The notes below the pieces were generated by a model that saw only the letters and a list, made by a program, of their open reading frames with translations, was not told the origin of the DNA and did not search any database. Shown here one piece after another: positions 6,999 to 60,235 of a DNA stretch of 64,000 nucleotides. The first letter of the stretch is position 1, and each line of letters opens with the position of its first letter. Position numbers and translations under genes: made by a program. Source of the DNA: a virus; the IMG/VR virus record IMGVR_UViG_3300043772_003377, positions 40,514 through 104,513 of that record; one strand, written 5' to 3'.

Positions 6999-9941
6999 TT
7001 ATTCATTTATATTTTTTATTGTTAATACATCTGATTCGTCATAGTATGATAACCTATTTGTTAATGATGAATTTTTAAAAATCTGACAAGTGTATAATTC
7101 ATAAACAGATGGTGTTTGACTAACACCCGTAACGGTAACAATAACACCATTAGAATAAACTGAATCTACCGTTATTGATATATCTTCCGTACCACCAAAT
7201 ACAGATCCGGTTATTGTTAATATTTCTCCAACCGCATATCCAGTACCACCCTGATTTAATACTACACTATTAACTAATCCATCAACAACCTCAACATCAA
7301 ATGTTGCGTTTTCACCACCAGTACCTTGTGCAAATATATTAGGGTATGAACCTGTGACACCTGTTACACTACTCACAAACCAATTATTAGGGATAATGTT
7401 CCAAGTGCTACCGGAGTCCGAACTATATAATAAAATTACAATGTCAACACCACTTCTTTCCTGCATTCTAACTTTGATAGGATATGTTCCACCTGTTAAT
7501 GTTATAGGATACTGATTTCCGTTCGGAAGATTTCCACTATCACCATGCCCCCCATACCAATCAGCAACTTTAATTCCATTAATGAATGCGTCTGAACCAT
7601 CATCACTACTTAATCCAAAATAGTATGTATTGTTGGAAGGAATGTTTATAATACCTTCAATTACCATTCCATAGTCACTTTGATCAACACCTGTTTGTGT
7701 TGAATATGAAACGCCCTGAATATTAGGAGAATTGTATGTATCAAAAAGAGGACTATTATTTATTAGATAATCCATTTCTGTTTCATTAGTTGGGTAAGTA
7801 TATGTTGAATCGGCAGGTTTATAAATTTTAACACTTAGTTTGTTATTAATTGAAAACCCATTTATAGTGCCCGAAGAACCGCCAATTTCAGTTCCTGGTA
7901 TTGTTATTGTATCACCTACTTGGTATAACTTACCTGATGTATTACCACTGACACCTATTACAGTATTCCCCGAAACTTCAACATCAAAAGACGCATTAAT
8001 ACCGTTACCGTTTGTTGTTCCGGTTAAATTAGTGTAAATACCATCGGTTGCTCCAGTACCTAAAGCGTTATATGTAAACGCAGTTATAATACCGTAATTT
8101 GTTGTAAAATCAACATTATTTACATATGTGTCAACGATATTCCATTGGAAGAATTCCCCAATTGTGTTATTGTAAAAGTTATCAGGAATTGTATTATTGT
8201 AGAAGTATTCACCAATAGTATTATTATAAAAATAATTCCCGATCCTATTACCTTGATTAGATGAACCACCAAATCCAAAATCAGGTGCAATAGAATTGTT
8301 ACTAAATAAATTTCCAATTTGGTTATATGAGAACTTATCACCAACTGTATTGTTATTAAATTCGTTTCCAATTACATTAAATTGAACATCTCCAAGTGTA
8401 TCATTTGAGTAAAAATCATTACCAATCTTATTTCCACTAAAATCATATAACCCAATAGTTAAATTGGTTCCGATATCATTATTATTAAAAACGTGTTCAA
8501 TATTATTTTCGTAGAAATTTGAATATATGGTATTACCATTATAACCGTTTCCAATTAAATTACGATAAAATTCTGAATAGATTTCATTTTGATTATATCC
8601 ATTACCAATATCATTATTATAGAAGTCATCATAAATTTTATTATCATTAAACTGGTTTCCTATTTCATTATTTTGAAAATCATTATTAGTCCAAACATTA
8701 TTATTAAAATTATTTCCAATATTGTTTCTATAAAAATCACTACCTAGTAAAGTGTTACCATAAAAATCACTACCAATTCTATTATTATTGAAATTTGATG
8801 TGATGTAATTGTTCCTAAAATTTTCCCCAATTATGTTACCGTCAAAGTCATCATTTGTTGAGTTGTTATAAAAACTATCACCTATTTGATTATTATCACA
8901 ATCATCGTTAAATGTGTTATTATAAGAACCGTTACCAATGGTGTTGTTTCTAAATGAACCATTTAATAATACATTATTTGCAAGTAAAAAATCTCCAGTA
9001 CCAAATTCTAAATGTAAATTAGAATAGTTACCAATATAGTTATTAACCGCGCCACCATCATCAATAGCATCACCAAATGTTGTGTATTCGTAAACTTGAT
9101 TTTGTCTTATATTAGGTTGATAATAACTCATTATACCATCGTCATTTCCAAAATAATAAAGTGAGTCAGTAGTTTCATTTATTGTCACACCTGATATAAT
9201 TGCTAAAGAATTACTCTCTACAGAGATGATTTCAAAAAACACAGGATCTAAATTTCGTACTGAAACAATGTCACCAGTTGAGAAATTTGAAACAAATGTT
9301 GTACCTGTATTACCATATAACACTGCAGTTGTCCCTGTTAAACCACTTATACCAACAAGACCACTTAATGGACTATCTTCGTCATATGAATATCCATTAT
9401 ATCTTTTAAATAAGATACTTCTGTGATCGTAGTCGGTTCTGTTATTGTATTGATCAATTCTTTCTGTAATTCTACCTTTTGCTGGACCACTAGTGATTTC
9501 AGTCGTATCCCAAGTAATATCGTAAGTTATATGATCTTGAGGGTATAATGCGGAATATATGGTAGGTGAAAAATCTGTTGTAGATATCGCCAATAATAAT
9601 ATAGGCTCTGTTGTTCCTGTTTTATAATTACCTGTAGTAATAGGGTTTTTGGTATTATCGTAGTTTGGTTGGTCATAACACGTTTGGAAATCTGTTATTA
9701 AATAATAAGAACCTTCAGTTAAACTTGATGAACCAATTAAACTGGTTAATTCTGAATACGTAACTTCGGTAACTCCACTCGACCCTGAAGACCCGCTTAG
9801 TATATAAGTTTTAAGGTCGTTTAATGTTGTATGTTTTGTTTCTCCCAAAACACCTAAATAACTTACGTTTACAAATAAGTCACCAGGAGTATATCCTGTG
9901 TAACCAACGTAAGGTAAATCTGAAATTCTAATATCTTCCAT
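6999..9941 (-). CDS. Large tail appendage with Asn-rich repeat stalk and PA14-like domain
   Basis: 980 residues. The N-terminus (MEDIRISDLPYVGYTGYTPG) resembles baseplate-attachment segments. Residues about 290-590 are a long Asn-rich repeat with runs such as NNTIGNGSYNNTF, FYNNTIGEYFYNN and FNNNRIGSDFYGN, likely a beta-helix or ladder. Around residues 700-860 is a PA14-like domain: IQGVSYSTQTGVDQSDYGMV, YFGLSSDDGSDAFINGIKVA, YPIKVRMQERSGVDIVILLY. PA14 domains often bind carbohydrate. Two Gly-rich segments (QGGTGYAVGEILTITGS and a related one) flank it. It is probably a receptor-binding or glycan-binding fibre. Confidence 0.75.
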   Translation of the reverse strand: MEDIRISDLPYVGYTGYTPGDLFVNVSYLGVLGETKHTTLNDLKTYILSGSSGSSGVTEVTYSELTSLIGSSSLTEGSYYLITDFQTCYDQPNYDNTKNPITTGNYKTGTTEPILLLAISTTDFSPTIYSALYPQDHITYDITWDTTEITSGPAKGRITERIDQYNNRTDYDHRSILFKRYNGYSYDEDSPLSGLVGISGLTGTTAVLYGNTGTTFVSNFSTGDIVSVRNLDPVFFEIISVESNSLAIISGVTINETTDSLYYFGNDDGIMSYYQPNIRQNQVYEYTTFGDAIDDGGAVNNYIGNYSNLHLEFGTGDFLLANNVLLNGSFRNNTIGNGSYNNTFNDDCDNNQIGDSFYNNSTNDDFDGNIIGENFRNNYITSNFNNNRIGSDFYGNTLLGSDFYRNNIGNNFNNNVWTNNDFQNNEIGNQFNDNKIYDDFYNNDIGNGYNQNEIYSEFYRNLIGNGYNGNTIYSNFYENNIEHVFNNNDIGTNLTIGLYDFSGNKIGNDFYSNDTLGDVQFNVIGNEFNNNTVGDKFSYNQIGNLFSNNSIAPDFGFGGSSNQGNRIGNYFYNNTIGEYFYNNTIPDNFYNNTIGEFFQWNIVDTYVNNVDFTTNYGIITAFTYNALGTGATDGIYTNLTGTTNGNGINASFDVEVSGNTVIGVSGNTSGKLYQVGDTITIPGTEIGGSSGTINGFSINNKLSVKIYKPADSTYTYPTNETEMDYLINNSPLFDTYNSPNIQGVSYSTQTGVDQSDYGMVIEGIINIPSNNTYYFGLSSDDGSDAFINGIKVADWYGGHGDSGNLPNGNQYPITLTGGTYPIKVRMQERSGVDIVILLYSSDSGSTWNIIPNNWFVSSVTGVTGSYPNIFAQGTGGENATFDVEVVDGLVNSVVLNQGGTGYAVGEILTITGSVFGGTEDISITVDSVYSNGVIVTVTGVSQTPSVYELYTCQIFKNSSLTNRLSYYDESDVLTIKNINE
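8120..8990 (-). repeat. Coding repeat encoding Asn-rich stalk
   Basis: Within the 980-residue appendage gene, degenerate units of roughly 10-12 codons encode variants of F/Y-x-N-N-x-I-G-x-x-F/Y. At DNA level this appears on the + strand as recurring attattattgaaa- and aaattattccaat-like words. The repeats are coding, diverged rather than identical, and explain the low-complexity look of this stretch. Confidence 0.6.
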
Positions 9942-29017: not shown

Positions 29018-29599
29018 TTATTGGACTTTCTTAATCTTAGTAACCTTACCTTCAAAAATATGTTTCCCAACTCTAAATGAAAATACATCATTAGTTTTTG
29101 AGGTCGACTCTACTAATAATCCATTTTCAGATAAAACTTCCTCAACGGTTTCTCTAACTATTGATTTAATAGTTTCCGCATCAATTCCAATATTAGTTTT
29201 CTGAACAGGTTGGGATTTATTAGTTTGCTGACCAGCAGCATTTGTATTCATAAGTCTTGCCGCTTTCTCAACTAAATCATTAGAGAGTGATGGACTTGTA
29301 GAAGTATTCGGTTGATTAATTGGGTGTTCGATCATTAATCTTTTAATTTCATCGGGTAATTTCGATGACATAACTCTTTCCTCAGTTATTGGTTGGGGAC
29401 TTATAGTCTTTTTATTTTCAATTGCAAATTCATCAGGTAACGAATATTTTGCTGATGGTGCGTTAAATTCTTGTACTTCAGGTGTTGATAACTCTTCATT
29501 CATAGGTAATTCATTTCCTGATCTTGGCATTTGCTTATGTTTATCCATTATTTGTTTGGATATCATTAATTTTTTAATTAAATCGTTTTCGTTTGTCAT
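29018..29599 (-). CDS. Hypothetical virion-type protein
   Basis: 193 residues. The N-terminal half is Pro/Ser/Gln/Asn rich and flexible. A helix around residues 135-155 (DAETIKSIVRETVEEVLSEN) ends in L-S-E. A small beta-rich C-terminus follows (DVFSFRVGKHIFEGKVTKIK). The helix resembles the amphipathic tags of the capsid-targeting-like family but is internal. It is last in a five-gene minus-strand run and ahead of a strong terminator. A head or prohead role is possible but unproven. Confidence 0.55.
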   Translation of the reverse strand: MTNENDLIKKLMISKQIMDKHKQMPRSGNELPMNEELSTPEVQEFNAPSAKYSLPDEFAIENKKTISPQPITEERVMSSKLPDEIKRLMIEHPINQPNTSTSPSLSNDLVEKAARLMNTNAAGQQTNKSQPVQKTNIGIDAETIKSIVRETVEEVLSENGLLVESTSKTNDVFSFRVGKHIFEGKVTKIKKVQ

Positions 29600-30000
29600 T
29601 ATTCCGCCATTCTTGTATCGTCAAAAGACGTGTTTATTATTACTCTTGTCATTCCTTTATCACCTGTTTTATTATATCCAGGTCTAATCTCACTAAAATC
29701 TTCACCTGAAGGTTTAAAAGATAGAATTTTGTCAACTCTAAACAATCTCCACCCCGGTAAAGGTTGTTCTCCCGTATAATTAGTATGGGAAGATCCTTCA
29801 GAATCCCACGCTCTTAAAACAGGATTATCTGCTTTACTATAACCAAAACAAACGGGTTCAATTTCTCTCAAACCTCTTCCTCCTGGCTCATCTCCATCAT
29901 AGTAAATTATCACTTTTTTTCTTTTTTTAATAGCGTCAACGATAGAATCGATTGATGCTACTTCTAAAATAAGTGATTTTGCTATGTTGTAAAGTTTCAT
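29599..30000 (-). CDS. WYL-like domain protein with targeting-like tag
   Basis: 133 residues. The N-terminus MKLYNIAKSLILEVAS is amphipathic with an I-L-E triplet, as in the capsid-targeting-like proteins. The rest resembles a WYL domain: KKRKKVIIYYDGDEPGGRGL, REIEPVCFGYSKADNPVLRA, then GWRLFRVDKILSFKPSGEDF. WYL domains sense nucleic acid or nucleotide ligands in bacterial regulators and are also found alone in phages. If the tag is real, this protein travels in the virion. It overlaps both flanking genes by one base. Confidence 0.6.
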   Translation of the reverse strand: MKLYNIAKSLILEVASIDSIVDAIKKRKKVIIYYDGDEPGGRGLREIEPVCFGYSKADNPVLRAWDSEGSSHTNYTGEQPLPGWRLFRVDKILSFKPSGEDFSEIRPGYNKTGDKGMTRVIINTSFDDTRMAE

Positions 30001-30290
30001 TATGTTGTTGGTTTTGTATATGGTTTTGATGGTCCGTATTCATTAATAGCTAACTCTTTTTTTCTTTCTACAATGTCTTGAACCGCACCTGCTTTATCAT
30101 TAAAAATATCCAAAAATTGACCAGTACCCTTACCATTTTCGTCCCCATCAGCTAAAGCGTCCTTATTAACCGCAGAGTATTCATTTTTTTTATTAAAATC
30201 ATTTTTTGGTAAAAGTCGAGATCTTTCCATCTCAGCAACTTCAGTAAGTTTGTTTTTTGGTTGTTCAAAATTTAATGGTTCTTGTATCAT
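30000..30290 (-). CDS. Small hypothetical protein
   Basis: 96 residues, hydrophilic, disordered-looking in the middle (DALADGDENGKGTGQFLDIF). No recognised motif. It overlaps the WYL-like gene by one base and follows the upstream gene by four bases, so it is part of the same operon, whose members may be virion proteins. Confidence 0.55.
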   Translation of the reverse strand: MIQEPLNFEQPKNKLTEVAEMERSRLLPKNDFNKKNEYSAVNKDALADGDENGKGTGQFLDIFNDKAGAVQDIVERKKELAINEYGPSKPYTKPTT

Positions 30291-30294
30291 AACT

Positions 30295-30753
30295 TTAAAT
30301 TATTTTATTTATTATGTCCTTTATTCTTCTAAGACTTTCTGTAACTTGTAAATCATATTGACCCAAATTAGTTTTATGTGATTTTGACGGTCTATTTAAA
30401 TTTCTAACATCAATATTAGTGTAAGGGTCTTCAGGATCGTGAGGTCTGAACTCATCATTTGATTTTGTATCTCTTCTCATACCATCTAAAGTTTTATCAA
30501 CCCAATCTTTAACATAATGACCACCATTTAATATGTAGGGTAACTCATTTTCTTGTCCGTTAAAGTTATCAAAGAAATTTTTCATTCTTTTTAGTTGTTG
30601 ATAAGTAACTTCCCTACTATCTCTTAGTTCTTTATTTCTTTTAAACCCTTCGGTTTTATCATCAGCACCTTTCGCAGCGTCAAAACATTGTCCCAAATAA
30701 GTGACAACATCTTCAGGTAATTCAATTTTATTTCCGTATAATTTACTATTCAC
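30295..30753 (-). CDS. Hypothetical protein, GTG start
   Basis: 152 residues. The likely start is the GTG complementary to 30751-30753, overlapping the previous gene by eight bases. The sequence is charged and helical with GGHYVKDWVDKTLDGMRRD. The last 18 residues (VTESLRRIKDIINKII) look like an amphipathic segment at the C-terminus, similar in composition to the N-terminal tags of other genes. No family recognised. Confidence 0.55.
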   Translation of the reverse strand: MNSKLYGNKIELPEDVVTYLGQCFDAAKGADDKTEGFKRNKELRDSREVTYQQLKRMKNFFDNFNGQENELPYILNGGHYVKDWVDKTLDGMRRDTKSNDEFRPHDPEDPYTNIDVRNLNRPSKSHKTNLGQYDLQVTESLRRIKDIINKII

Positions 30754-31473: not shown

Positions 31474-31481
31474 TATAAATA
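31474..31481 (-). promoter_or_regulatory. TATTTATA element, left arm of divergent region
   Basis: Coding-strand TATTTATA preceded by GAGAA and followed by ATAGTTATAAAT, with its 5' end 25 bases before the ATG at 31456. It forms the minus-strand half of a two-sided promoter region with the element at 31520. Confidence 0.45.
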
Positions 31482-31537: not shown

Positions 31538-34369
31538 ATGTCAAATCAAAATATTAATCATTGGGCTAACTCAAAATGGTTTCCTAAGTTGTCTTTGGGG
31601 TCTTACGATATGTCATTAACTACTGACGAGACTGAATTTAATCAGGAAGTAGTGTTTTCGCCATATCTAATATCTCAAACATATGGTAATAAATTACCTT
31701 TTTATTTTGATTTAAATAATTCAGGTACTACTCAAAACATTGTTTTAAATTACAAAGAATATAATGCAGATAACATAATAGTTTCTCAGAACTATTATAA
31801 TCCTAATAATGAAAACCTTAGTTGTTTTACTTCATCAACATCTTGTGATATTGGATTAACAGGTACAGATAATGGACTCGTAAATAAAATGACAGGAGAG
31901 ACCATAACATTTACAAATGGATTATTAAGCAATAGTTCAAAATTTGATAGATTACATTTTGATAGAAGATTAAAATTATTTCAAGTTACGGGTTACACTC
32001 AATCACCTAATGTTAAATTTTCAGGTATACAAAACACGACCCTATATGAGGTTGTTAGTAAAGAAGATTCATCATTTGGGAAATATCACGAATTGTATGG
32101 AGGATTTTACCAAGGATTTTATAAATTATTTGGTTATGATTATGAAATTTTTCCTGAGAGATTTAATAAGGGATGGTCAGTTGAGATGTTAATGAGGCCT
32201 AGATTATATGATGAATATAGTCCTGGTTTGGGTGAAACAACATTAAATCAAATATACCCTAATAACAAAAATATATTCTTTTATTTTGGTACTAGATCCG
32301 AAAACAAATATTACCATCATGCGGATGGAACACCAAATTGTTTTACAGGATATACCAGAGTTACATCGGATTTAACGGGGGTAACCACTTGTTCTTGTTG
32401 TAATGAAAATATTACAAATAGTAGGTGTATCTTTATATATCCCCCACGATCAGTTAATGGGGTTCACGACCCTCACGTAAATTACGGGTGTAGTAGTTGT
32501 AATGGTGATAAAAATGTTAGCGTTACCTGTGGATGTAATTGTTATAAAACAGAATGTGAAACTTGTGGTTGGGAATGTCAAACACATAAATGCGACACAA
32601 TTATAACCGCATCAACGACTACCACAACAACCACAATAATTGATGATTGTACAATCACTACCACTTGTAGTGAAATTTGTCAAACTTGCTCTGATTGTTC
32701 AGATTGTGACACTTGCGAAGAGACTTTCGATTCAATAGAGGATACTTGTGAGAAAAACCCATTATATGATGGAATGTCAAATGCGTTTGCGTTAAAACTT
32801 TGCGGAGACCCAAAAAACCCTCAAATAGGTGTTAGATTTTTAAGATTTACCGGTGATTGTGTTACGACAGGGACTTGTGAAACAGGTAACACATATAGTA
32901 CAGGATATACAATAACAGAATATTGTACACCACCAATTTACTCAAGATGTCAAAAAGAAAACCCGTCTTGGTTAGATATTGAACATTGGTTTCAGGTTAA
33001 TGTTGTTTGGGAACGATATACATTTTTAGATGAATGTGATTTAAAATATAGAGGAGGTTTATCAGACATAACCAAAAAAATATTTTTAGAATCTTTAGCG
33101 AATAACACGGCCTCGTTAATTACCACTCCTTATACTAACGGTAAAAAAACAGCGTTACAGATGGAGTTAGTTAATTTAAATGAAAAATGGTTATTAGATG
33201 GTAAATTTAGAAAAGGTAGATTAAAAATCTATGTTAACGGTAAATTACACGATACTATTGAGGATTTTGAGGAGATAATTCCAAGGGCGTTAAATACCGA
33301 CAAGGAAAGACAAATTGGAGTTCCGTTTAATATTTCTTGGGGTGGGGGAACTCAAGGACTTAGAGACCACTTAGTTTTTAGTTCATCAACTCAATTAGAA
33401 GGACCATATATACAAGACCCCGAATTATTTCCTACAAATGTATTGTCAGGAACAACTTTTAGTGGTTTAAACACTAACATACAAATAGAACAAAATTTTG
33501 CAGGAACTTTTGAGGGCGGGATTTCTCAGTTTAGAATGTACATAGAACCTTTAAGTGCTCCTGAAGTAAAACATAATTTCAAAATTTTAAAGGATCAGTT
33601 CATTATGTTTGACCCTGATTGTCCTAATTGTAATACGACATTTTGTGAGCCTAATGATTTCGAATACGATATTTTAACTACCACAACAACAAGTATGGAA
33701 TTATTCCAAGACTTGGGATTTGGATTGGGTAGGGAATTAAAAATTGATAAAAGGGATTTAAATTATTTAATTGAGAATAAAATTAATTTACCGAAAACTT
33801 TATTAACTGAAAAGTATTGGGATGCCGATGGATGGTGGGGTAATCAAAAAAATACACCTCATTGTGTCGGATTTTCTTGGGCTCATTGGATTGATGACGG
33901 ACCAATAAAACACGTGGGTCTCAAACCAAATACTGACCCTGTTTTAATTTATCGAAATGCTCAAAAATTAGATGAATGGCCGGGAGAAAATTATAATGGA
34001 ACTTCAGTTAGAGGAGGAGCTAAATACTTAAAAAGTGTTGGAAAAATAAAATCATATTTATGGACTTTCAATATAAACACTTTAATACAAACATTATTAA
34101 CTCAAGGACCTGTTGTGGTTGGAACAAATTGGTATACGGGAATGTTTTATCCGAATAAAGACGGATTAATAAAATTAAGTGGTAGAGTTGCCGGTGGACA
34201 TGCTTACGTATTAAATGGTGTTAACACTAAAAAACAACAATTTAGAATAAAAAATAGTTGGGGGAAATCTTGGGGATTATCAGGACACGCTTTTATAAGT
34301 TTTTCTGATATGCAAAGATTAATAAAAGAAAATGGTGAAATTTGTTTAGCGGTTGAGAATAATTTTTAA
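31538..34369 (+). CDS. Virion protein with C-terminal papain-like cysteine peptidase
   Basis: 943 residues. The N-terminal part is beta-rich and contains a lectin-like region (FNKGWSVEMLMRPRLYDEYS). Residues about 284-406 are Cys-rich with CSCCNEN, CGCNC and CQTCSDCSDCDTC, and include Thr-rich runs. The C-terminal ~200 residues form a C1 papain-like peptidase: oxyanion Gln770, nucleophile Cys776 (HCVGFSWA), His888 (GGHAYVLNGV) and Asn906 (KNSWGKSWG). The Gln-to-Cys spacing of six equals papain's, so the active site looks intact. It starts the plus-strand fibre region. Likely role: a tail or virion protein that can cleave a host or virion protein. Confidence 0.85.
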   Translation: MSNQNINHWANSKWFPKLSLGSYDMSLTTDETEFNQEVVFSPYLISQTYGNKLPFYFDLNNSGTTQNIVLNYKEYNADNIIVSQNYYNPNNENLSCFTSSTSCDIGLTGTDNGLVNKMTGETITFTNGLLSNSSKFDRLHFDRRLKLFQVTGYTQSPNVKFSGIQNTTLYEVVSKEDSSFGKYHELYGGFYQGFYKLFGYDYEIFPERFNKGWSVEMLMRPRLYDEYSPGLGETTLNQIYPNNKNIFFYFGTRSENKYYHHADGTPNCFTGYTRVTSDLTGVTTCSCCNENITNSRCIFIYPPRSVNGVHDPHVNYGCSSCNGDKNVSVTCGCNCYKTECETCGWECQTHKCDTIITASTTTTTTTIIDDCTITTTCSEICQTCSDCSDCDTCEETFDSIEDTCEKNPLYDGMSNAFALKLCGDPKNPQIGVRFLRFTGDCVTTGTCETGNTYSTGYTITEYCTPPIYSRCQKENPSWLDIEHWFQVNVVWERYTFLDECDLKYRGGLSDITKKIFLESLANNTASLITTPYTNGKKTALQMELVNLNEKWLLDGKFRKGRLKIYVNGKLHDTIEDFEEIIPRALNTDKERQIGVPFNISWGGGTQGLRDHLVFSSSTQLEGPYIQDPELFPTNVLSGTTFSGLNTNIQIEQNFAGTFEGGISQFRMYIEPLSAPEVKHNFKILKDQFIMFDPDCPNCNTTFCEPNDFEYDILTTTTTSMELFQDLGFGLGRELKIDKRDLNYLIENKINLPKTLLTEKYWDADGWWGNQKNTPHCVGFSWAHWIDDGPIKHVGLKPNTDPVLIYRNAQKLDEWPGENYNGTSVRGGAKYLKSVGKIKSYLWTFNINTLIQTLLTQGPVVVGTNWYTGMFYPNKDGLIKLSGRVAGGHAYVLNGVNTKKQQFRIKNSWGKSWGLSGHAFISFSDMQRLIKENGEICLAVENNF

Positions 34370-34371
34370 TT

Positions 34372-35295
34372 ATGAGTAATTTTATTGAAATAAAAAGTGT
34401 TAATTATGATGGGGAGGAAGCCAATATTCTTTTCACCCCATATCAAGAATCTAACGTTATAAATTTAGGAATTGTAACTTTACCATTCATATTTGAACCT
34501 GATTTATTAGTTCCGCCAAAAAATATTTACGGAAATTATACGATATTAGTTAAAGGAAGTAATTGTCCTTATATTTTAAATGTTCCGTCGCCGCCACCCA
34601 CTCCAACACCTACTCCAACACCAAGACCAACAAGGACTCCAACTCCCACACCCACCCCAACTCCTACCCCAACCGAAACTTGTCCCACACCAACACCAAC
34701 TCCAACTCCCACACCAACACCAACTCCATTTGTGGAATCGGCATTTTTATTTATTGAACCGGTTTCAGGATCCTCAGCAATTGGTCAATGGATGTATGAT
34801 AATGGTTCCAATTTCTTTGGTTTCACCAACGCGTCTCAGCCGGCTCAAAATCAACCCCAATTTAATATTGATATGAATTTGTACGTTGATTTTGGCGCAT
34901 GGACTTGCGGTCAATTTCCAAAAATTATTAGTCAATTAGTTCCACAAACTACTGGTGGTTTAGATTCTTTTGGTAACTTAAAAGTTGCTTACAATTTTTT
35001 AACAACGGAAGTTCCTGAAAATTATGTGGGTGGAGAAGCTTGGTACACTTGGATAATACCGGTTTCGTTAACAAATAATGAAACACAAACAATGATTGAT
35101 ATAAACACGAATAATAGTCCTAATTTAATGACCGCAGTATCTACTGAAGGTGCAATAAATTCTTACACATTTACTTATTCGGGAACAACAATACCTAAAA
35201 CAACTTATAAAGTTTATACAACTTTCCCTAATACAATTTTCCAAATAAACAATAGTCAGAATATTTATTTCAAAGGTAATACTATATCACCTTAA
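34372..35295 (+). CDS. Virion protein with PT-repeat linker
   Basis: 307 residues. The N-terminal 75 residues form a beta-domain (MSNFIEIKSVNYDGEEANIL, TLPFIFEPDLLVPP), followed by a Pro-Thr repeat of about 45 residues. The C-terminal 185 residues are another beta-rich domain (IGQWMYDNGSNFFGF, FPKIISQLVPQTTGGLDSF). It follows the papain-fusion gene after two bases and precedes a fibre gene. PT linkers are flexible spacers in fibres and adhesins. A structural or receptor-binding role is likely; the end domains are unrecognised. Confidence 0.65.
   Translation: MSNFIEIKSVNYDGEEANILFTPYQESNVINLGIVTLPFIFEPDLLVPPKNIYGNYTILVKGSNCPYILNVPSPPPTPTPTPTPRPTRTPTPTPTPTPTPTETCPTPTPTPTPTPTPTPFVESAFLFIEPVSGSSAIGQWMYDNGSNFFGFTNASQPAQNQPQFNIDMNLYVDFGAWTCGQFPKIISQLVPQTTGGLDSFGNLKVAYNFLTTEVPENYVGGEAWYTWIIPVSLTNNETQTMIDINTNNSPNLMTAVSTEGAINSYTFTYSGTTIPKTTYKVYTTFPNTIFQINNSQNIYFKGNTISP
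34586..34730 (+). repeat. PT-coding microsatellite-like repeat
   Basis: Reiterated CCAACA/CCAACT/CCTACC/CCCACA codons encode a Pro-Thr linker. Synonymous codons vary, so it is not a perfect DNA repeat, but short exact blocks recur. A related PT tract lies at 49541-49622. Confidence 0.75.
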
Positions 35296-37937: not shown

Positions 37938-40900
37938 ATGGCAAATCGAAATTCAACGTTTTTATTAAAACGTTCAAATATTATTGATAAAGTCCCAAAT
38001 CTTACGGGACTCACAATTGGGGAATTGGCTCTAAACACGGCAGATTCAAAGTTATATACAATTTTTACATCAGGAACAACAGGTGCTACAGAAGTTAGAC
38101 AAATTGGTTGGGATAGAGTTAGTAGAACTGGTGATACAATCACAGGTGATTTATATGTAACAGGAAAAACAATAACAAATCAACTACAAGTAACGGGAGG
38201 AACATTAACTTCAGGTTATGTTTTAACTTCAGATGGTGTTGGAAACGCTACTTGGGTTTCTCCAACAATTGTTTCCGGTTATTATCTACCTCTGTCAGGT
38301 GGTACCGTAACAGGTGGAACTAGTTTTAATAGTGGTCTAACGGCAAATACAATTTATACGGATTATATTGATTTTAATACAAATCCAACCGTACCTTCTC
38401 CAACAGGAGGAACACTTTATTTTGATTCAAATGAAAACGCTTTATCATACAAACCATTAACAAATCAAAATGATGTTACGGTTAATTTAGGTCAAGAATC
38501 GTTAATTAAAATTTACAATAATTTAGGATATCAAATTAATAATGGTCAAGTTTTACATATAACAGGTGCAACTGGTGGGGTACCAACGGTTGCGTTAGCG
38601 AACGCTTCAAAATTGGGGACAACATTTACTGAAAGTATCGCTCAAACTTCGGGTGTTGCGACTCACGACATACCGACAGGGGAATTTGGTTTTATGACAA
38701 ACTTTGGTATTGTTAGGGATTTAAACACAACCGCGTTTACCGTAGGTCAAGAAGTTTTTTTGTCAGACACTATTGATGGTGCCTTAACCAATGACCCAAA
38801 TAATATTGCCTTCACATCAAGGATATCGACCGTTGGATATTGTATCGAATCTGACCCAACTAATGGAAAGATACTTGTTGTAATAACAAATGAAAATGCG
38901 TTACAAAGTTTAACTCAACAAGAAATAAATGTTTTATTAGGTAATACGATTTCAACCGGTGCGTATTTTTATACGGGAGCAACAACTGCGTCAACAACAA
39001 CAATAAATGTATCACCAGTTAGAGGGTGGATAGTTTATAACACAGGAAGTCAGTACGCGACAAATCCTTTAGTTCTTAATGTTTATTATAGTGGTGGTAC
39101 AAATTTACCAGTTACGGGTTTAACTAGTTCATCCGACACTTATTTATTAGTTAATAGTGGCGGTACTTTATATCAAACAAACACATTCCCATCACCAGAG
39201 GAGAGAAGATATAATATATTTTTAGGTAGGGTAGTTCATCCAAACAAAACAACAATACTAAATGTTGAACAATCTGTGGATTATGATGTTTCCCCATTAT
39301 CATCTCTTAGAGATTTATGGGTTCCGATTAAAATAATAAATGAAGGTGTGGTGCCAAGTCCTAATGGTGCTACTTTAACATTTAAAACTTCATCCGGTAC
39401 TTTTTGGGGTAATGGGATAGGTTTCCCAACAAATGAACTTAATCCAAATTCAATCACCGTACCCGCTTATATTCCGGCGTCTTTTTATTATACAACACAA
39501 ACAGGTGGAACTTTTACCGCAACCACGACAACCGTTGATTCTGAAAATTATGACGTTGGTGGTGTTATAACTAATATACCCGGAGCCGGAAATTACTCGA
39601 CTCAAAGAATTTATATGTCACAAAGTGGTGTGATTAGACTTCAGTATGGTCAAAATTATTATTCCACTTTAGCGAAAGCAATTGCAGCAATACCAAGTGA
39701 GACATTTATTGTTAATCCCGATAATTCATTGGATTGTACTTTAATTGGTTTATTGACCGTTAAAGATGGTACATCAGATTTGAGTAATGCTGATGACGCA
39801 ATTTTTACATTTGTGTCTAAGTTCGGTGAAATTTTAGGTGGTACCGGAGGGATTTCAACCACAACATTACAACAGGCTTATGATAATTCGATTAACCCCG
39901 AAATTGTTACAAATACCACTTTAGGTGGAGTTCAATTTAAAGGGGGTACTGGAAATAATACCGATAAAAATATTATCATTGAAAATAATAGTAGTGTTGA
40001 AACGGGTTATTGGAACGCCGACGGTTCATTGTTCGCTTCGACAATAACTGGGGGTACAACAACAATTAATGGTAATTTAACCGTAACGGGAAATACAAGT
40101 TTACAATCGTTAACTGCGGGGACTAGTACTATAAATGGTAATTTAACCGTAACGGGAAATACAAGTTTACAATCGTTAACTGCGGGGACTAGTACTATAA
40201 ATGGTAATTTAACCGTAACGGGAAATACAAGTTTACAAGGGTTGACCGCGACAACAATTTCGGCAACAACTTACCAAAATTTACCAACTGATATTAGAGT
40301 TACAGGAGCTAGTTATTCGAACAACACGTTCACATATACTAACAATACGGGAGGAACTTTTTCAGTATTATTCAATACCTTAACGGGTTTAACCGTGAAT
40401 GGTAATTTAACCGTAACGGGAAATACGAGTTTACAATCATTAACCGCAGGAACTAGTACCATAAATGGTAATCTATCGGTAACAGGTAATACGTCAATGA
40501 CGGGTACGTTAAGTGTTACGGGTAATACAAATATTAGGTCATTTACAGGAACGAGTGGTTATATATCGGGTAGTGGACAAAATATTTTAACCGTAATTGG
40601 TTCGGGTAATAGTACGACATCACCATTATTTACTGTACAAGGTTCATCGGGTGAATTGTTTAGTGTTACAGATTCATTAACGGGTTCTTTATTTAGTGTT
40701 AATGATATTTCGGGTTTACCAATATTAGAAGTCTTTTCTGATAATAGAATATTACAAGGAAGTTATTTAGCACCATCACTTAATACAACGGTCAGAACAT
40801 CATTAACCGCTGGAACTAATAGTGTTTACTCAATTCCGACAAGTGCTTATACGGGAGCATTTTTCGATTACACCTTAATAAGTACTGGTAGTACGGGTGC

Positions 40901-41087
40901 AAGAGCTGGAACGATTATGTCAATATGGAGTGGTTCAACCACACAATATACTGATGTTTCAACGAATGATATTGGAACAACAACTGGGGTCACATTCTCA
41001 GTCGCGGTCTCAGGTAGTAACGCAGTTCTAAGTAGTTCTGCAACAACAACGGGATGGACATTAAAAACAATTGTTAGGTCAATATGA
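37938..41087 (+). CDS. Large tail fibre with beta-helical repeats
   Basis: 1049 residues. The N-terminus MANRNSTFLLKRSN is shared with the upstream fibre. Around residues 80-130 is a segment GDTITGDLYVTGKTITNQLQ. Residues 710-890 contain repeats of G-N-L-T-V-T-G-N-T-S-L-Q, consistent with a beta-helix shaft. The C-terminal 170 residues (FTVQGSSGELFSVTDSLTGS, NSVYSIPTSAYTGAFFDYTL) look like the receptor-binding head found at the end of many phage fibres. It overlaps the next gene by four bases, so the lectin-like protein is translated with it. Confidence 0.75.
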   Translation: MANRNSTFLLKRSNIIDKVPNLTGLTIGELALNTADSKLYTIFTSGTTGATEVRQIGWDRVSRTGDTITGDLYVTGKTITNQLQVTGGTLTSGYVLTSDGVGNATWVSPTIVSGYYLPLSGGTVTGGTSFNSGLTANTIYTDYIDFNTNPTVPSPTGGTLYFDSNENALSYKPLTNQNDVTVNLGQESLIKIYNNLGYQINNGQVLHITGATGGVPTVALANASKLGTTFTESIAQTSGVATHDIPTGEFGFMTNFGIVRDLNTTAFTVGQEVFLSDTIDGALTNDPNNIAFTSRISTVGYCIESDPTNGKILVVITNENALQSLTQQEINVLLGNTISTGAYFYTGATTASTTTINVSPVRGWIVYNTGSQYATNPLVLNVYYSGGTNLPVTGLTSSSDTYLLVNSGGTLYQTNTFPSPEERRYNIFLGRVVHPNKTTILNVEQSVDYDVSPLSSLRDLWVPIKIINEGVVPSPNGATLTFKTSSGTFWGNGIGFPTNELNPNSITVPAYIPASFYYTTQTGGTFTATTTTVDSENYDVGGVITNIPGAGNYSTQRIYMSQSGVIRLQYGQNYYSTLAKAIAAIPSETFIVNPDNSLDCTLIGLLTVKDGTSDLSNADDAIFTFVSKFGEILGGTGGISTTTLQQAYDNSINPEIVTNTTLGGVQFKGGTGNNTDKNIIIENNSSVETGYWNADGSLFASTITGGTTTINGNLTVTGNTSLQSLTAGTSTINGNLTVTGNTSLQSLTAGTSTINGNLTVTGNTSLQGLTATTISATTYQNLPTDIRVTGASYSNNTFTYTNNTGGTFSVLFNTLTGLTVNGNLTVTGNTSLQSLTAGTSTINGNLSVTGNTSMTGTLSVTGNTNIRSFTGTSGYISGSGQNILTVIGSGNSTTSPLFTVQGSSGELFSVTDSLTGSLFSVNDISGLPILEVFSDNRILQGSYLAPSLNTTVRTSLTAGTNSVYSIPTSAYTGAFFDYTLISTGSTGARAGTIMSIWSGSTTQYTDVSTNDIGTTTGVTFSVAVSGSNAVLSSSATTTGWTLKTIVRSI
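40065..40240 (+). repeat. 66-bp tandem repeat in fibre gene
   Basis: Units start at 40065, 40131 and 40197, 66 bases each (22 residues, ATAAATGGTAATTTAACCGT start). The first two are almost identical and the third diverges in its second half; a fourth degenerate copy starts near 40400. Coding, part of the fibre shaft. Confidence 0.8.
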
Positions 41088-41770
41088 GTTATAATTTTTC
41101 CCCTAAAATAGTTACCGATGGTCTTGTCTTTTATTTGGATGCTGCGAATACCAAATCATATATTGGTTCAGGTACAACTTGGACAGATTTAAGTAGAGGT
41201 GATAATAGTGGGATTTTAAATGGGGCGGTCTTTAATAGTTTAAATGGTGGTAGTATATCTTTTGATGGTGTTGATGATAATGTAAATTGTGGAAATAATT
41301 CCGCGTTGGACGTTGGAAACAATATTACGGTAAATGCTTGGATTTTTTTACCTAGTGCGGGAGCAATTACAGGTTATAGACCAATAGTGTCCAAAGTTGT
41401 TAGTGGAGCGACATTGGGTTGGGAGATGGGAAATAGTGCGGGAACTCTTAGGTGTGTATTCAGACCAACATCAAGTATTATAGACCTTTCAGGACCAACA
41501 TTATCTATAGGTGTTTGGCAGATGTGTACATTTACTTATAATAATGTAACCGCTAGATTATATTTAAACGGGGTTTTAGGGGCGTCGACATCAAGTGGAG
41601 GTCCTGTAACATTAAACTCAACACAACCACTTCAGGTTGCGACAAGAGGTATTGGCGGTAGTACATTTTTTGGTAGAATATCGATGGTTTCAGTATATAA
41701 TCGAGCTTTATCTACTACAGAAATATTACAAAACTACAACGCGAATAAATCAAGATTTGGATTAAGTTAA
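41084..41770 (+). CDS. LamG/concanavalin A-like lectin protein
   Basis: 228 residues. It starts MSYNFSPKIVTDGLVFYLDA with IGSGTTWTDLSRGDNSGIL, then SISFDGVDDNVNCGNNSALD and VNAWIFLP, matching the strand pattern of LamG/concanavalin-type folds. The pattern ends NRALSTTEILQNYNANKSRF. Two paralogs follow (41772, 42737). It overlaps the large fibre gene by four bases. Probable sugar-binding tip or side protein of the fibre. Confidence 0.75.
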   Translation: MSYNFSPKIVTDGLVFYLDAANTKSYIGSGTTWTDLSRGDNSGILNGAVFNSLNGGSISFDGVDDNVNCGNNSALDVGNNITVNAWIFLPSAGAITGYRPIVSKVVSGATLGWEMGNSAGTLRCVFRPTSSIIDLSGPTLSIGVWQMCTFTYNNVTARLYLNGVLGASTSSGGPVTLNSTQPLQVATRGIGGSTFFGRISMVSVYNRALSTTEILQNYNANKSRFGLS

Positions 41771-41771
41771 A

Positions 41772-42467
41772 ATGGCGGGAAGAATATCATATTTAGGTGG
41801 AATCGTAAAGGATGGTCTAGTATTAGATTTAGATGCGGGTAAAATAGATTCTTATCCAAGAACAGGAACTTTATGGAGAGATTTAAGTGGTAATAACAAT
41901 AATGGTACTTTAACAAACTTTGGTTCTCAAACTATATGGAATGGTGATAATGGGGGAAGTATTATTTTTGATGGTAGTAATGATATCGTTTCGGTAAATA
42001 ATGTCGTACCAACTGGGGATAGTTCTAAAAGTGTCTTTATGATTTTTAAATCAACAACTACGATATCAACAAGACAATGGTTATTTTATTCTGGTACCGA
42101 AACTGTTGGTGGTAGATTTGCGTTAGAAATAGAAAATAGTAGGTTTACCTTTAATTATTATAGCGCGGCACTACAACCAACAACACTTATCAGTAATACT
42201 TGGTACTACGGAGGTGTAACATATAACTCAACAACAAAACAATTATTAATATATTTAAATGGTGTATTACAAAGTACTACAACTTTTCCGGTAGCATCAA
42301 TTAGTTTAAACACAGGTAATGGTGCTACAAACTACGTTGGGAATATTTTTAACGCCAGTTTCCCTTTAAACGGGAACATTGCCGTAACACAAGTGTATAA
42401 TAAAGTGTTATCACAATCAGAAGTAACACAAAACTACAACGCATTAAAAGGAAGATATAATTTATAA
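41772..42467 (+). CDS. LamG/concanavalin A-like lectin protein
   Basis: 231 residues, paralog of the preceding gene and more closely of 42737-43483. It has GGIVKDGLVLDLDAGKIDSY, LWRDLSGNNNNGTLTNFGSQ, TIWNGDNGGSIIFDGSNDIV, and ends NKVLSQSEVTQNYNALKGRY. The shared IWNGDNGGSIIFDG core is nearly identical in the third paralog. Likely carbohydrate binding, surface-exposed on the virion. Confidence 0.75.
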   Translation: MAGRISYLGGIVKDGLVLDLDAGKIDSYPRTGTLWRDLSGNNNNGTLTNFGSQTIWNGDNGGSIIFDGSNDIVSVNNVVPTGDSSKSVFMIFKSTTTISTRQWLFYSGTETVGGRFALEIENSRFTFNYYSAALQPTTLISNTWYYGGVTYNSTTKQLLIYLNGVLQSTTTFPVASISLNTGNGATNYVGNIFNASFPLNGNIAVTQVYNKVLSQSEVTQNYNALKGRYNL

Positions 42468-42470
42468 AAT

Positions 42471-42740
42471 ATGGAAACACAATTATACGAAAACAGAAAA
42501 TTTATGATATTTGATGTTAGTGAACTACCAAATATTGATTTCACTCAAGTATGTGAAACTTCAATTGATACGGTTAGAAAATCGGTTGACGGAACAAAAA
42601 CATTTGTTAAATGGGATACTGAAGGAATTCCTTCATCAGTAGATAGTTTAACAACTAAAGAAGGTCCATACAACTATGAAGAGATATTAACAATATTATC
42701 AACCCCAGAATGGACTAATCCAAATCCAATGACAATATGA
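42471..42740 (+). CDS. Small fibre-associated protein
   Basis: 89 residues. It begins METQLYENRKFMIFDVSELP and has a C-terminus with WTNPNPMTI. It is placed between two lectin-like paralogs and overlaps the next gene by four bases (ATGA). Comparable small proteins (55212, 5536, 9944, 44244) sit beside fibre genes, so an assembly-chaperone or accessory role is plausible. No domain is recognised. Confidence 0.6.
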   Translation: METQLYENRKFMIFDVSELPNIDFTQVCETSIDTVRKSVDGTKTFVKWDTEGIPSSVDSLTTKEGPYNYEEILTILSTPEWTNPNPMTI

Positions 42741-43483
42741 GTACGGTAAATGGTAATTATTATGGTGGAATTGTAAAAGATGGTTTGGTGTTATTGTTGG
42801 ATGCCGCCAAGAGAGATTCTTATCCTAGAGTCGGTACTACCTGGACTGATATTACTTGGAATGGAAATAATGGTACTTTAACAAACTTTGGTTCTCAAAC
42901 GATATGGAATGGTGATAATGGAGGTAGTATTATTTTTGACGGAACTAATGATTATCTTATAAACACTTCACTTCCAACATTTAATGTTGGTTCTATTAAT
43001 ATATGGTTTAAACCAACCACCACAATAAATGCTAGTTCTCCCGTTTCAACATTAATACAATTAAGGTACGGGACATCGATAGGAAGTGGATGGTATATAC
43101 AATTTGGACCTGCAACTTCATTATTAACCAACGAATATTTAACAATAATCGACTTAGTATCCGGTCGTAGACAAGGGTTAACCACAGTAGGCGGTTCTTT
43201 TTTAGCGAATACTTGGTATAACTTGGTTTTCAATTATGAAAGTACTCAATATCAAATATATGTGAATAGTGTTTTAAACACATCCACATCGTCACCTAGT
43301 GGTGTTGGTTTATTGACCAACCCAAATAGATTATTGATAGGAGCGGGTAGTGGTGAGGGTATAGTAAACCCATTTGACTTTCTTAACGGAAACGTCTCAA
43401 TCGTACAGATTTATAATAGAACTCTTTCCACATCTGAAATAACTCAAAACTATAACGCTCAAAAAGGTCGTTTTGGTTTATAA
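42737..43483 (+). CDS. LamG/concanavalin A-like lectin protein
   Basis: 248 residues, third paralog. GGIVKDGLVLLLDAAKRDSY, then TWTDITWNGNNGTLTNFGSQ and TIWNGDNGGSIIFDGTNDYL place it in the LamG-like family. The end NRTLSTSEITQNYNAQKGRF matches its paralogs. The core DNA is similar to the gene at 41772, showing duplication of the cassette with the small gene between. Confidence 0.75.
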   Translation: MSTVNGNYYGGIVKDGLVLLLDAAKRDSYPRVGTTWTDITWNGNNGTLTNFGSQTIWNGDNGGSIIFDGTNDYLINTSLPTFNVGSINIWFKPTTTINASSPVSTLIQLRYGTSIGSGWYIQFGPATSLLTNEYLTIIDLVSGRRQGLTTVGGSFLANTWYNLVFNYESTQYQIYVNSVLNTSTSSPSGVGLLTNPNRLLIGAGSGEGIVNPFDFLNGNVSIVQIYNRTLSTSEITQNYNAQKGRFGL

Positions 43484-48724: not shown

Positions 48725-49957
48725 ATGGAATTTTTTATTAAGAGATCGACCACTTTACCATTGTTAAAATTATCTGTCGTTAAAGATGGAAGATCAGAAT
48801 TTAACAATTTTATGAGTTTAATTGAGCAATCTGCAATTTTCTTCTCAATGACGGACGTTGAAACAGGTATTCCAAAGATAAGTTCAAGACCGGCAGGATT
48901 TGTTGAAAAACAAATGATTAATCCAAATGCCGAACCTGAATATTATATTTATTATCAATTTACTTCAAAAGATACAAATAGAATCGGTAGATATGAAGGT
49001 CAATTTATGTTAAGAAGTGATGATGGCGTTTTAATATTACCAATAAGGGAAAAATTATTTATAAATGTTCAAGAATCATTTATCGCTGACGATTTAGTTT
49101 ATGAAACTTGTTATACTTCAGAATTTCCTTGTTGTGTAAGTCCTTTACCGACTCCAACAATTTTACCAACAACTACAACAACATCAACTTCAACTACCAC
49201 TACAACAACAATTCCTCCAACAGGAGTTACGGTTAGTATTTTAACTGAGGTTATGTCAGGTTCAGTTATATTTAATTTTAGCGTTGTTTTATCCAGACAA
49301 TTAGATACAGATTATACGATAACTTTAACAAAAGAGTTTAATGTTATTAGCGGAAGTCCAATTAATGTTTCGGCAAGTATTACAATACCTTCGAATGAAA
49401 TATCAGGTGCCACATCTGTCGTAATTGATGATGATATAAATAGAATAGTTAGTGGTAGTACAACGTCATCTATCGATCATAACCCAAATAATGGAGTTTC
49501 TTATACCGAGATAGAGGAAGTTAGGTATATTAATTTTACTCCTAAACCTTCTCCAACACCTACCCCAACACCAACTCCAACTCCTACCCCAACACCAACT
49601 CCAACTCCTACCCCAACTCCAGTTCAAGAAACTTTTGTTAAGTTTGGTAAATCAACTAAACAAAGAATTTATGAGAGTGATATTACAGGATTTACAAAGA
49701 AAATACTTAATGATGTTAAGAATCAATATTTGGAATATCCTACACAACAAGGATATTGTTATTTATTGGTACCGAATTATATGAATCAACCAAGTGTGTT
49801 TAGAGATAGTGCCGATGGATGTGATGGATTTGTTATACCATTTTTAAGGGTTGAAGATATAGAAATTATTGACTCAAATGGAAATTTGAGTATATATTAT
49901 GTGTATAGGTCTTTTGTCTCTACATCATCTAAGGTTGATGTATGGGTATGTGACTAA
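48725..49957 (+). CDS. Virion protein with PT and T-rich linkers
   Basis: 410 residues. The N-terminal ~130 residues form a beta-domain (FIKRSTTLPLLKLSVVKDGR, YYIYYQFTSKDTNRIGRYEG, LPIREKLFINVQESF). A Thr-rich linker is followed by an Ig-like stretch (TGVTVSILTEVMSGSVIFNF, YTITLTKEFNV), then a PT linker around residues 275-300, then a C-terminal domain of 105 residues (FVKFGKSTKQRIYESDITGF). It is likely a fibre or baseplate-associated structural protein with flexible arms. Confidence 0.65.
   Translation: MEFFIKRSTTLPLLKLSVVKDGRSEFNNFMSLIEQSAIFFSMTDVETGIPKISSRPAGFVEKQMINPNAEPEYYIYYQFTSKDTNRIGRYEGQFMLRSDDGVLILPIREKLFINVQESFIADDLVYETCYTSEFPCCVSPLPTPTILPTTTTTSTSTTTTTTIPPTGVTVSILTEVMSGSVIFNFSVVLSRQLDTDYTITLTKEFNVISGSPINVSASITIPSNEISGATSVVIDDDINRIVSGSTTSSIDHNPNNGVSYTEIEEVRYINFTPKPSPTPTPTPTPTPTPTPTPTPTPTPVQETFVKFGKSTKQRIYESDITGFTKKILNDVKNQYLEYPTQQGYCYLLVPNYMNQPSVFRDSADGCDGFVIPFLRVEDIEIIDSNGNLSIYYVYRSFVSTSSKVDVWVCD
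49541..49622 (+). repeat. PT-coding repeat
   Basis: Pro-Thr linker codons with a perfect 24-bp unit (49563-49586 and 49587-49610). A second PT tract is at 34586-34730. Coding. Confidence 0.75.
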
Positions 49958-59020: not shown

Positions 59021-60232
59021 ATGAAAGAAACAACAAAATTAAAAATCGGAATCACATTAAGTTTAAAAACCACCAATGAATCTATATGGACAAATGGTAT
59101 TAAATTAAATGTACTTAATTTAGTCAGATTATTAAAACGTTCAAAAAAAGAATACGAAGTCTGTATTCTAAACACCGTAAAGTTAGATTGGTCGACAAAG
59201 GCTGATTATTTAAAAGGAATCGACATTTATTTTTTTGATGAAAAATTTAAAGAAATGGATTTAATCATTTCTATGGGTGCTCAAGTTGATGAAACTCATT
59301 TGAAAAAATTTAAGGAAAAACAAGATAAAAAAGTTATTGGGTATAAATGTGGAAACAACTATGTTGTTACAATGGAAAACATTTTATTTAAAGAACCCGA
59401 AAAAAACACGATATACCAATATGAAAAAGAATTTGATGAAATTTGGTATATTCCACAACAACACGAAACCAATTATGGTTTTTATAGGACACTTTATAGA
59501 ACAAACGCGATAATGGTTCCTTTTGTATGGGATAATAAATTTATTGTTGACGGTTTGTTCGACATAGAAATGGGTTATAAAAAAGGTGAATACAAAAAAG
59601 GTTATAAATACAATTCGGAAAAGAAAGAAAAGGTTATTGGGATTATGGAACCTAACATTAATATTGTTAAGTTCGCTTTGATTCCAACGTTAATTGCGGA
59701 ACAAAGTTATAGAACAAGAATAGGTAAAGAAAGAATACAAGAACTATTAATAACTAATTCGGAAAATATTTCAACAAACAAAGAATTTTTATCCATAATC
59801 GAAACTTTGGATTTATATAAGGAAAAGAAAATTTTTTCAGAAAAAAGGTATCAAACAAGTTTTATTTTAACCCAATATATCGATGTGGTTATTTCGCATC
59901 AACTATTAAATCCTTTAAATTATCTTTATTTGGATATTGCTTATATGGGTTACCCTATTTTACATAATGCACCTCTTTGTAAAGACTTGGGTTATTATTA
60001 TGAGGGTTCAAATACGATTGAAGCATCAAAAAAATTAAATTGGATTTTAACTGAACACGATAAAAATTTGGAGGAATACACATACAGAAATAGACAGGTA
60101 TTAAAAAAATATTCTAACACAAACGAAGATTTAATTGATAATTACGATAAACTAATTCATAATTTATTTAACGGTGGAAATACTGAGATGTATTATGATT
60201 CAGAAAAAAACTTATGTTTTAAAAAAAATTAA
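59021..60232 (+). CDS. DUF2827-like glycosyltransferase-fold protein
   Basis: 403 residues. LKIGITLSLKTTNESIWTNG followed by IKLNVLNLVRLLKRSKKEYE is the signature start of DUF2827-type proteins, thought to be GT-B-related. VIGIMEPNINIVKFALIPTL, VVISHQLLNPLNYLYLDIAY and YPILHNAPLCKDLGYYYEGS follow in the second half. It is paralogous to the next gene (three-base gap), with many identical blocks. Sugar transfer is inferred from fold family only. Confidence 0.75.
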   Translation: MKETTKLKIGITLSLKTTNESIWTNGIKLNVLNLVRLLKRSKKEYEVCILNTVKLDWSTKADYLKGIDIYFFDEKFKEMDLIISMGAQVDETHLKKFKEKQDKKVIGYKCGNNYVVTMENILFKEPEKNTIYQYEKEFDEIWYIPQQHETNYGFYRTLYRTNAIMVPFVWDNKFIVDGLFDIEMGYKKGEYKKGYKYNSEKKEKVIGIMEPNINIVKFALIPTLIAEQSYRTRIGKERIQELLITNSENISTNKEFLSIIETLDLYKEKKIFSEKRYQTSFILTQYIDVVISHQLLNPLNYLYLDIAYMGYPILHNAPLCKDLGYYYEGSNTIEASKKLNWILTEHDKNLEEYTYRNRQVLKKYSNTNEDLIDNYDKLIHNLFNGGNTEMYYDSEKNLCFKKN

Positions 60233-60235
60233 GAT

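What the first reader, a model, noticed from the sequence alone, without database searches (positions are those of the whole stretch)
31538..34369. Complete papain-like peptidase fused to a virion structural protein
The C-terminal domain has Gln770, Cys776, His888 and Asn906 in canonical C1 papain contexts, with Gln-Cys spacing of six as in papain. Such a domain on the end of a long, lectin-like, Cys-rich virion protein is unusual for a phage. It could cleave host surface protein or auto-process a fibre.
Basis: partly seen in the sequence, partly recalled or inferred. Interest (0 to 1): 0.7.

Follow-up and report, generated by a model that had tools for sequence, protein, structure and literature searches.

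The report
Swappable papain protease on phage adhesin
A lake-type T4-like phage carries an intact papain-like protein-cutting domain on the end of a conserved, late-expressed, probably surface-exposed protein, and relatives show that this domain is traded between several unrelated phage proteins, which suggests (but does not prove) that the virus particle carries a protease as an exchangeable tool.

Summary
ORF 31538-34369 (943 aa) ends in a papain-fold peptidase with Gln770, Cys776, His888 and Asn906. It matches Pfam Peptidase_C1 and phrog_16701; its model (pLDDT 85.5) matches xylellain and cathepsins. The catalytic residues are invariant in every relative that covers them, and dN/dS is about 0.1 in close pairs.

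The peptidase is not unusual for phages: xylellain-type C1A enzymes are published in Caudoviricetes and annotated in cultured phages, where those inspected are free ~220-aa proteins. What is new is the fusion. A 712-residue carrier with 33 conserved Cys has 538 matching stretches in IMG/VR, none in cultured phages and, in most near relatives, a T4-type late promoter motif. After residue ~712 it takes different C-terminal modules: papain (19 of 47 nearest), none (22) or others (6; VWA, DUF285). Conversely the papain domain rides on at least five unrelated N-terminal parts. The domain tree needs 7 carrier changes (5 forced).

I read it as an exchangeable peptidase payload on a late, probably virion-surface adhesin that cuts host surface protein. 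Virion location and substrate are inferred; no conserved self-cleavage site was found. 'Virion structural' and 'lectin-like' are only weakly supported for the carrier.

The parts
31538..34369 (+). 943-aa fusion protein: carrier + linker + papain-like peptidase
   Evidence: ORF and translation; single copy in the 104,513-base record
31538..33673 (+). Carrier, residues 1-712; conserved protein with 33 Cys conserved in at least 94% of 48 carriers; weak LamG-type signal
   Evidence: Alignments; 538 matching stretches in IMG/VR; none in cultured phages
32339..33037 (+). Cys-rich part of the carrier (residues 268-500), with an internal Thr-rich or Pro-Thr linker
33674..33724 (+). Variable Thr-rich linker (residues 713-729) and module-exchange point; conservation collapses after residue 712
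   Evidence: Column conservation; tails of relatives
33725..34366 (+). Papain-like (C1A, xylellain-type) peptidase domain, residues 730-943
   Evidence: Pfam, PHROGs, PDB profile, AlphaFold2 and Foldseek
33845..33847 (+). Codon of Gln770 (oxyanion hole)
33863..33865 (+). Codon of Cys776 (nucleophile)
34199..34201 (+). Codon of His888
34253..34255 (+). Codon of Asn906
31474..31481 (+). TATAAATA, candidate T4-type late promoter at -64 (at about -40 in most relatives that have it)
   Evidence: 23 of 40 distinct relatives against 1.3% of random 120-bp stretches
34372..35295 (+). Next gene: small beta-type domain (resembling the part that carries the peptidase in L013, by eye) + Pro-Thr linker + further domain
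37938..41087 (+). Tail-fibre-like protein of the same gene run (phrog_16641)
41084..43483 (+). Three LamG-type (concanavalin-like) proteins of the same gene run

Best explanation
The ORF joins a conserved, probably late-expressed phage protein (carrier, residues 1-712) to an exchangeable, catalytically competent-looking C1A (xylellain-type) cysteine peptidase (730-943) through a Thr-rich linker. SHOWN: papain-type domain with complete catalytic residues under purifying selection; sharp junction at residue ~712; the same carrier takes other modules or none; the same peptidase sits on at least five unrelated N-terminal parts or stands alone; a T4-type late promoter motif before the carrier in most relatives. 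INFERRED: the carrier is a virion-surface adhesin, most likely of the tail or fibre system; it holds the peptidase on a flexible linker so that it cuts a protein of the host surface or its surroundings (adhesin, S-layer, matrix protein) on contact, and module swapping tracks changing hosts. No eukaryote-type propeptide was seen, so the domain is probably active once folded.
For: Domain and catalytic residues. Fold: AlphaFold2 pLDDT 85.5, pTM 0.85, Foldseek best match xylellain 3OIS (E 6e-11), 277 PDB hits at E<=1e-3, the 50 listed being papain-family proteins. Selection: dN/dS 0.09 against L002 and 0.12 for L010/L019. Swapping: 47 distinct near carriers with papain 19, no module 22, other module 6 including VWA and DUF285; L082 and L085 share 91% identical DNA up to the point where papain is added in one and the ORF stops in the other; L008 and L009 share 90% identical papain DNA with unrelated DNA directly upstream, the DNA of the L009 N-terminal part lying about 4 kb away in L008. 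Tree: all fused forms lie in one clade (100/96) whose neighbours stand alone; 7 carrier changes, 5 forced by starred branches. Carrier present without papain in contigs where papain sits on another protein. Late promoter motif. Fibre, LamG and tail-type genes follow on the same strand; the record has T4-type terminase, portal and capsid genes.
Against: No proteomics: the carrier is not shown to be in the virion. Its LamG similarity is weak and its fold could not be modelled. Free-standing relatives in Gordonia and Arthrobacter phages sit beside lysis genes, which fits a non-virion role for the ancestral enzyme. A T4-type late promoter would also be expected for lysis genes. No substrate is known.
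Confidence: 0.5

Rival explanations
1. Late intracellular or lysis enzyme: the peptidase works inside the dying cell, degrading envelope or cytoplasmic proteins to help lysis or remove host proteins, and the carrier fusion merely adds binding or stability.
For: Cultured-phage relatives inspected are free ~220-aa proteins; in Gordonia phage Forza the gene lies between endolysin and holin genes, in Arthrobacter phage Mufasa8 next to a holin; GMA2 annotates its copy as a putative lysin. The late promoter motif fits.
Against: In XacN1, RAS14, BillNye and Thonko it is not in a lysis cassette. In this phage group it is repeatedly attached to proteins of an adhesin/fibre-type neighbourhood, which a cytoplasmic enzyme would not need.
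Confidence: 0.22
2. Auto-processing: the domain cuts its own carrier or neighbouring fibres during assembly, in the manner of the self-cleaving C-terminal chaperone domains of some tailspikes.
For: C-terminal position; self-cleaving C-terminal domains are known in phage tailspikes (abstracts of PMC3742443 and PMC8326128); cathepsins mature by self-cleavage (PMC10380794).
Against: The linker has no conserved site and varies in length and composition; nearly half of the near carriers have no peptidase and end near the same point, so maturation does not require it; the domain also stands alone and on unrelated proteins.
Confidence: 0.12
3. Matrix or debris clearing: a virion-borne peptidase that degrades extracellular proteins (biofilm matrix, released host protein) rather than a receptor-linked surface protein.
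For: Same anatomy as the best explanation; the module alternates with adhesive-type modules such as VWA and DUF285.
Against: No host or habitat data tie it to matrix protein; not separable from the best explanation by sequence.
Confidence: 0.1

Closest known systems
Xylellain (Xylella fastidiosa, PDB 3OIS) and short bacterial C1A peptidases
   Same: Papain fold, Q-C-H-N order, single domain; best structure and profile match. PMC10380794 reports xylellain-type C1A peptidases acquired by Myoviridae and Siphoviridae.
   Different: About 19% identity in the Foldseek alignment; here the domain is fused C-terminally to phage carriers.
phrog_16701 / phage 'papain family cysteine protease' (XacN1 ORF382, Stenotrophomonas RAS14, Streptomyces BillNye, Gordonia Forza, Mycobacterium Thonko)
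   Same: Same domain family; 26-42% identity where at least 80% of the domain is matched.
   Different: Stand-alone genes of ~215-240 aa in varied contexts; no cultured record carries the 712-residue carrier.
Phage tailspikes with C-terminal self-cleaving chaperone domains
   Same: Proteolytic activity at the C-terminus of a fibre-type protein.
   Different: A different kind of domain (from my own knowledge); here the domain is dispensable, exchangeable and also free-standing, with no conserved cleavage site.
NlpC/P60 and CHAP peptidoglycan hydrolases of phages
   Same: Papain-like superfamily enzymes; PMC7824862 describes NlpC/P60 proteins that are sometimes tail-associated.
   Different: No NlpC/P60 or CHAP match here; this is a classical C1 peptidase.
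LamG/concanavalin-type phage proteins (PF13385, phrog_8510)
   Same: Weak profile similarity of the carrier; the hhalign match covers its C-terminal 'FEGGISQFRMY' segment.
   Different: Carrier has a large conserved Cys-rich part and does not reach Pfam's cut-off.

Membership tests
Peptidase family C1 (papain, PF00112) | Profile match above the curated cut-off | tested here: met
   25.7 bits against 20.7 for the whole protein, 28.9 for the domain alone
Peptidase family C1 (papain, PF00112) | Catalytic Gln-Cys-His-Asn in that order, Gln six residues before Cys | tested here: met
   Q770, C776, H888, N906; invariant in all rows that cover the position: Q 54/54, C 55/55, H 57/57, N 57/57
Peptidase family C1 (papain, PF00112) | Papain fold | tested here: met
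   AlphaFold2 pLDDT 85.5; Foldseek top hits papain-family proteins, best TMq 0.70
Peptidase family C1 (papain, PF00112) | Formed active-site geometry | not testable with these tools
   Model coordinates not available to me
Peptidase family C1 (papain, PF00112) | Peptidase activity | not testable with these tools
   Needs expression and a Cys776 mutant
Xylellain-type short C1A peptidases | Xylellain as nearest solved structure; no I29-type propeptide | tested here: met
   3OIS ranks first by fold and profile; no inhibitor/propeptide domain among the Pfam hits; free forms begin close to the domain
Tail fibre / virion structural protein (carrier) | Profile match to a virion protein family | tested here: inconclusive
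   phrog_8510 in 7 of 17 carriers, best E 1e-3; none for the window's own copy
Tail fibre / virion structural protein (carrier) | Present in purified virions | not testable with these tools
   No cultured carrier-bearing phage was found
LamG / concanavalin-like lectin (carrier) | LamG_3 profile above cut-off or predicted jelly-roll | tested here: inconclusive
   3 of 17 carriers, best E 0.035; 29% hhalign probability to the window's LamG proteins; structure model failed
Self-cleaving C-terminal chaperone domains of tailspikes | Conserved cleavage site at the domain border | tested here: not met
   Linker residues 713-729 are poorly conserved and of variable length
NlpC/P60 or CHAP peptidoglycan hydrolase | Profile match | tested here: not met
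   No such match among the Pfam hits

The most novel reading that the evidence does not exclude
The 712-residue carrier is a general display scaffold of an uncultured T4-like phage group, onto which phages swap C-terminal payloads (protease, VWA, BspA-like repeats, beta domains, or none); with papain as payload the virion carries a protein-cutting counterpart of polysaccharide depolymerases, removing a host surface protein during attack.
Probability: 0.35. Interest if true: 0.72.

Novelty: new variant of a known kind. Interest (0 to 1): 0.48.

Why it matters
Virion enzymes known from phages mostly cut sugars or cell wall (own knowledge). A classical papain-type peptidase displayed on an adhesin would point to protein barriers or protein receptors as targets, in a phage group with no cultured member carrying this carrier. 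The carrier with sharply bounded, swappable C-termini also offers a natural system for asking how phages exchange payload domains, and it becomes directly testable once an isolate is found.

Tried and rejected
Carrier structure: AlphaFold2 with 17 sequences gave pLDDT 31, so I did not run a fold search on it. Profile search of the carrier against PDB sequences gave nothing. Search for the carrier in 50,697 cultured-phage records at E<=1 gave nothing. PHROGs on the conserved minus-strand neighbours (29018-30753) gave no family. Degenerate catalytic domain (binding only): rejected, catalytic residues invariant. Peptidoglycan hydrolase of NlpC/P60 or CHAP type: rejected, no profile match. Host gene through contamination: rejected, the record has phage terminase, portal and capsid genes and the locus is syntenic in tens of viral contigs. 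Bacterial homologues are all on MAG contigs and some may be phage-derived; not used as evidence of a host origin. TATAAATA before the peptidase genes of the other fusion types and free forms: mostly absent, so the late-promoter argument holds for the carrier only. Literature searches found no paper on papain-type peptidases fused to phage adhesins, which is weak evidence because only open-licence papers are held.

Full report
OBSERVATION. Pfam gives Peptidase_C1 above its cut-off, PHROGs gives phrog_16701 'peptidase' at 5e-56 over residues 730-940, and a profile of 54 relatives matches xylellain and cathepsins in the PDB with the catalytic residues aligned. The AlphaFold2 model of residues 716-943 has mean pLDDT 85.5 and pTM 0.85; Foldseek ranks xylellain first (E 6e-11, TMq 0.70) and the other listed hits are papain-family proteins. 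So the domain is real and complete in sequence. Distances in the active site were not measured.

CONSERVATION. In 57 aligned domains every sequence that covers the position has Q, C, H and N (54, 55, 57 and 57 rows). The two closest useful pairs show dN/dS of 0.09 (window and L002) and 0.12 (L010 and L019), similar to the carrier. This is what an enzyme in use looks like.

THE ENZYME ALONE IS KNOWN. Searches of 50,697 phage records found the domain in about 70, among them Xanthomonas XacN1, Stenotrophomonas CM1 and RAS14, and Streptomyces, Gordonia, Arthrobacter and Mycobacterium phages, many already annotated as peptidase or cysteine protease. The seven I opened encode it as a free protein of about 215-240 aa, twice beside lysis genes and otherwise in mixed contexts. 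PMC10380794 states that short xylellain-type C1A peptidases were acquired by Myoviridae and Siphoviridae. The peptidase itself is therefore not new.

THE FUSION. In 71 IMG/VR loci the domain occurs (a) on the 712-residue carrier, (b) on a ~150-aa N-terminal part beginning MEFYIKKNATLPLLK (which reminds me of BppU-type baseplate N-termini, a lead only; no Pfam match), (c) on a ~75-aa beta-type part resembling the start of the next window gene, 34372, (d) on a ~75-aa Cys-containing part, (e) on two further short parts, and (f) alone. On a 70-row tree all fused forms lie within one clade (support 100/96) whose nearest outside relatives stand alone; the carrier label changes 7 times, 5 of them forced by well supported branches. 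Two standalone copies (L040, L053) lie inside the fused clade, so fusion can also be lost.

THE CARRIER. Searching with the carrier gave 538 matching stretches in IMG/VR, of which the nearest 80 were kept. Among 47 distinct complete ones, 19 carry papain, 22 end within about 50 residues of residue ~712 and 6 carry another module, including VWA (5e-7) and DUF285/BspA-like repeats (2e-44). These are the nearest relatives of this carrier, so the proportions are not those of the whole family. Column conservation stays at about 0.6-0.95 to residue ~700 and collapses after ~712. Two natural comparisons show clean module boundaries: L082 and L085 (91% identical DNA up to the point where papain is added or the ORF stops) and L008 and L009 (90% identical papain DNA, unrelated DNA before it). 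In L013-L015 and L041 the contig holds the carrier without papain some kilobases from the protein that bears it.

IS THE CARRIER A VIRION PROTEIN? Not shown. Points in favour: it opens a + strand run of fibre-like and LamG-type genes; the record is a T4-like phage with terminase, portal and major head protein (nearest cultured relatives Flavobacterium immuto and Microcystis Mel-JY01); TATAAATA, the T4-type late promoter consensus (own knowledge), occurs in 23 of 40 distinct upstream regions, mostly at -37 to -42, against 1.3% of random stretches (at -64 in the window); some carriers weakly match LamG_3 and phrog_8510. Points against: no cultured relative, no proteome, no usable structure model. 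Late expression also fits a lysis protein.

MECHANISM. I think the most likely role is a peptidase payload held by a flexible linker on a late, surface-exposed adhesin, cutting a protein on or around the host cell. The repeated move onto other N-terminal parts, always at the C-terminus, with intact catalytic residues, fits a tethered tool better than a maturation factor: nearly half of the near carriers lack it and end near the same place, and no cleavage motif is conserved in the linker. A late intracellular or lysis role remains a serious rival because of the lysis-cassette neighbours of some free-standing relatives.

NOVELTY. Known enzyme family, known presence in phages, new arrangement: an exchangeable C1A payload on a conserved, so far uncultured carrier family. 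I rate it a new variant of a known kind.

Noticed in passing
window 31538-33673 and relatives L073-L152: Carrier family with 33 Cys conserved in at least 94% of 48 members, 538 matching IMG/VR stretches and no match in cultured phages; fold unknown, could be Zn clusters or disulfides.
   Followed up: partly
window 31474-31481 and relatives: T4-type late promoter motif TATAAATA, mostly at -37 to -42 before the carrier gene, in 23 of 40 distinct relatives.
   Followed up: yes
window 34372-35295, 48725-49957; L109, L110, L116, L134: Pro-Thr and Thr-rich repeat linkers separate modules in many proteins of this phage group and may be recombination points for module exchange.
   Followed up: partly
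L152:8209-9588, L110:8167-9756: Other C-terminal modules on the same carrier: a VWA domain and DUF285/BspA-like repeats.
   Followed up: partly
window 59021-62284: Two adjacent genes with DUF2827 (E 2e-94 and 5e-93), the second with a glycosyltransferase family 25 domain; several other glycosyltransferases at 21084, 27692 and 47434.
   Followed up: no
L168:4468-6498: ATP-dependent protease gene in the same record with a very strong phage-family match (phrog_4871, E 2.8e-238).
   Followed up: no
L153, L154 (genome contigs): Peptidase homologues in Tissierellales and Acidobacteria MAG contigs; L153 lies on a 3.1-kb contig and may be phage-derived.
   Followed up: no
window 6999-9941: 980-aa minus-strand protein with a PA14 domain (E 4e-11) and no PHROG match; possibly another carbohydrate-binding phage protein.
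   Followed up: no
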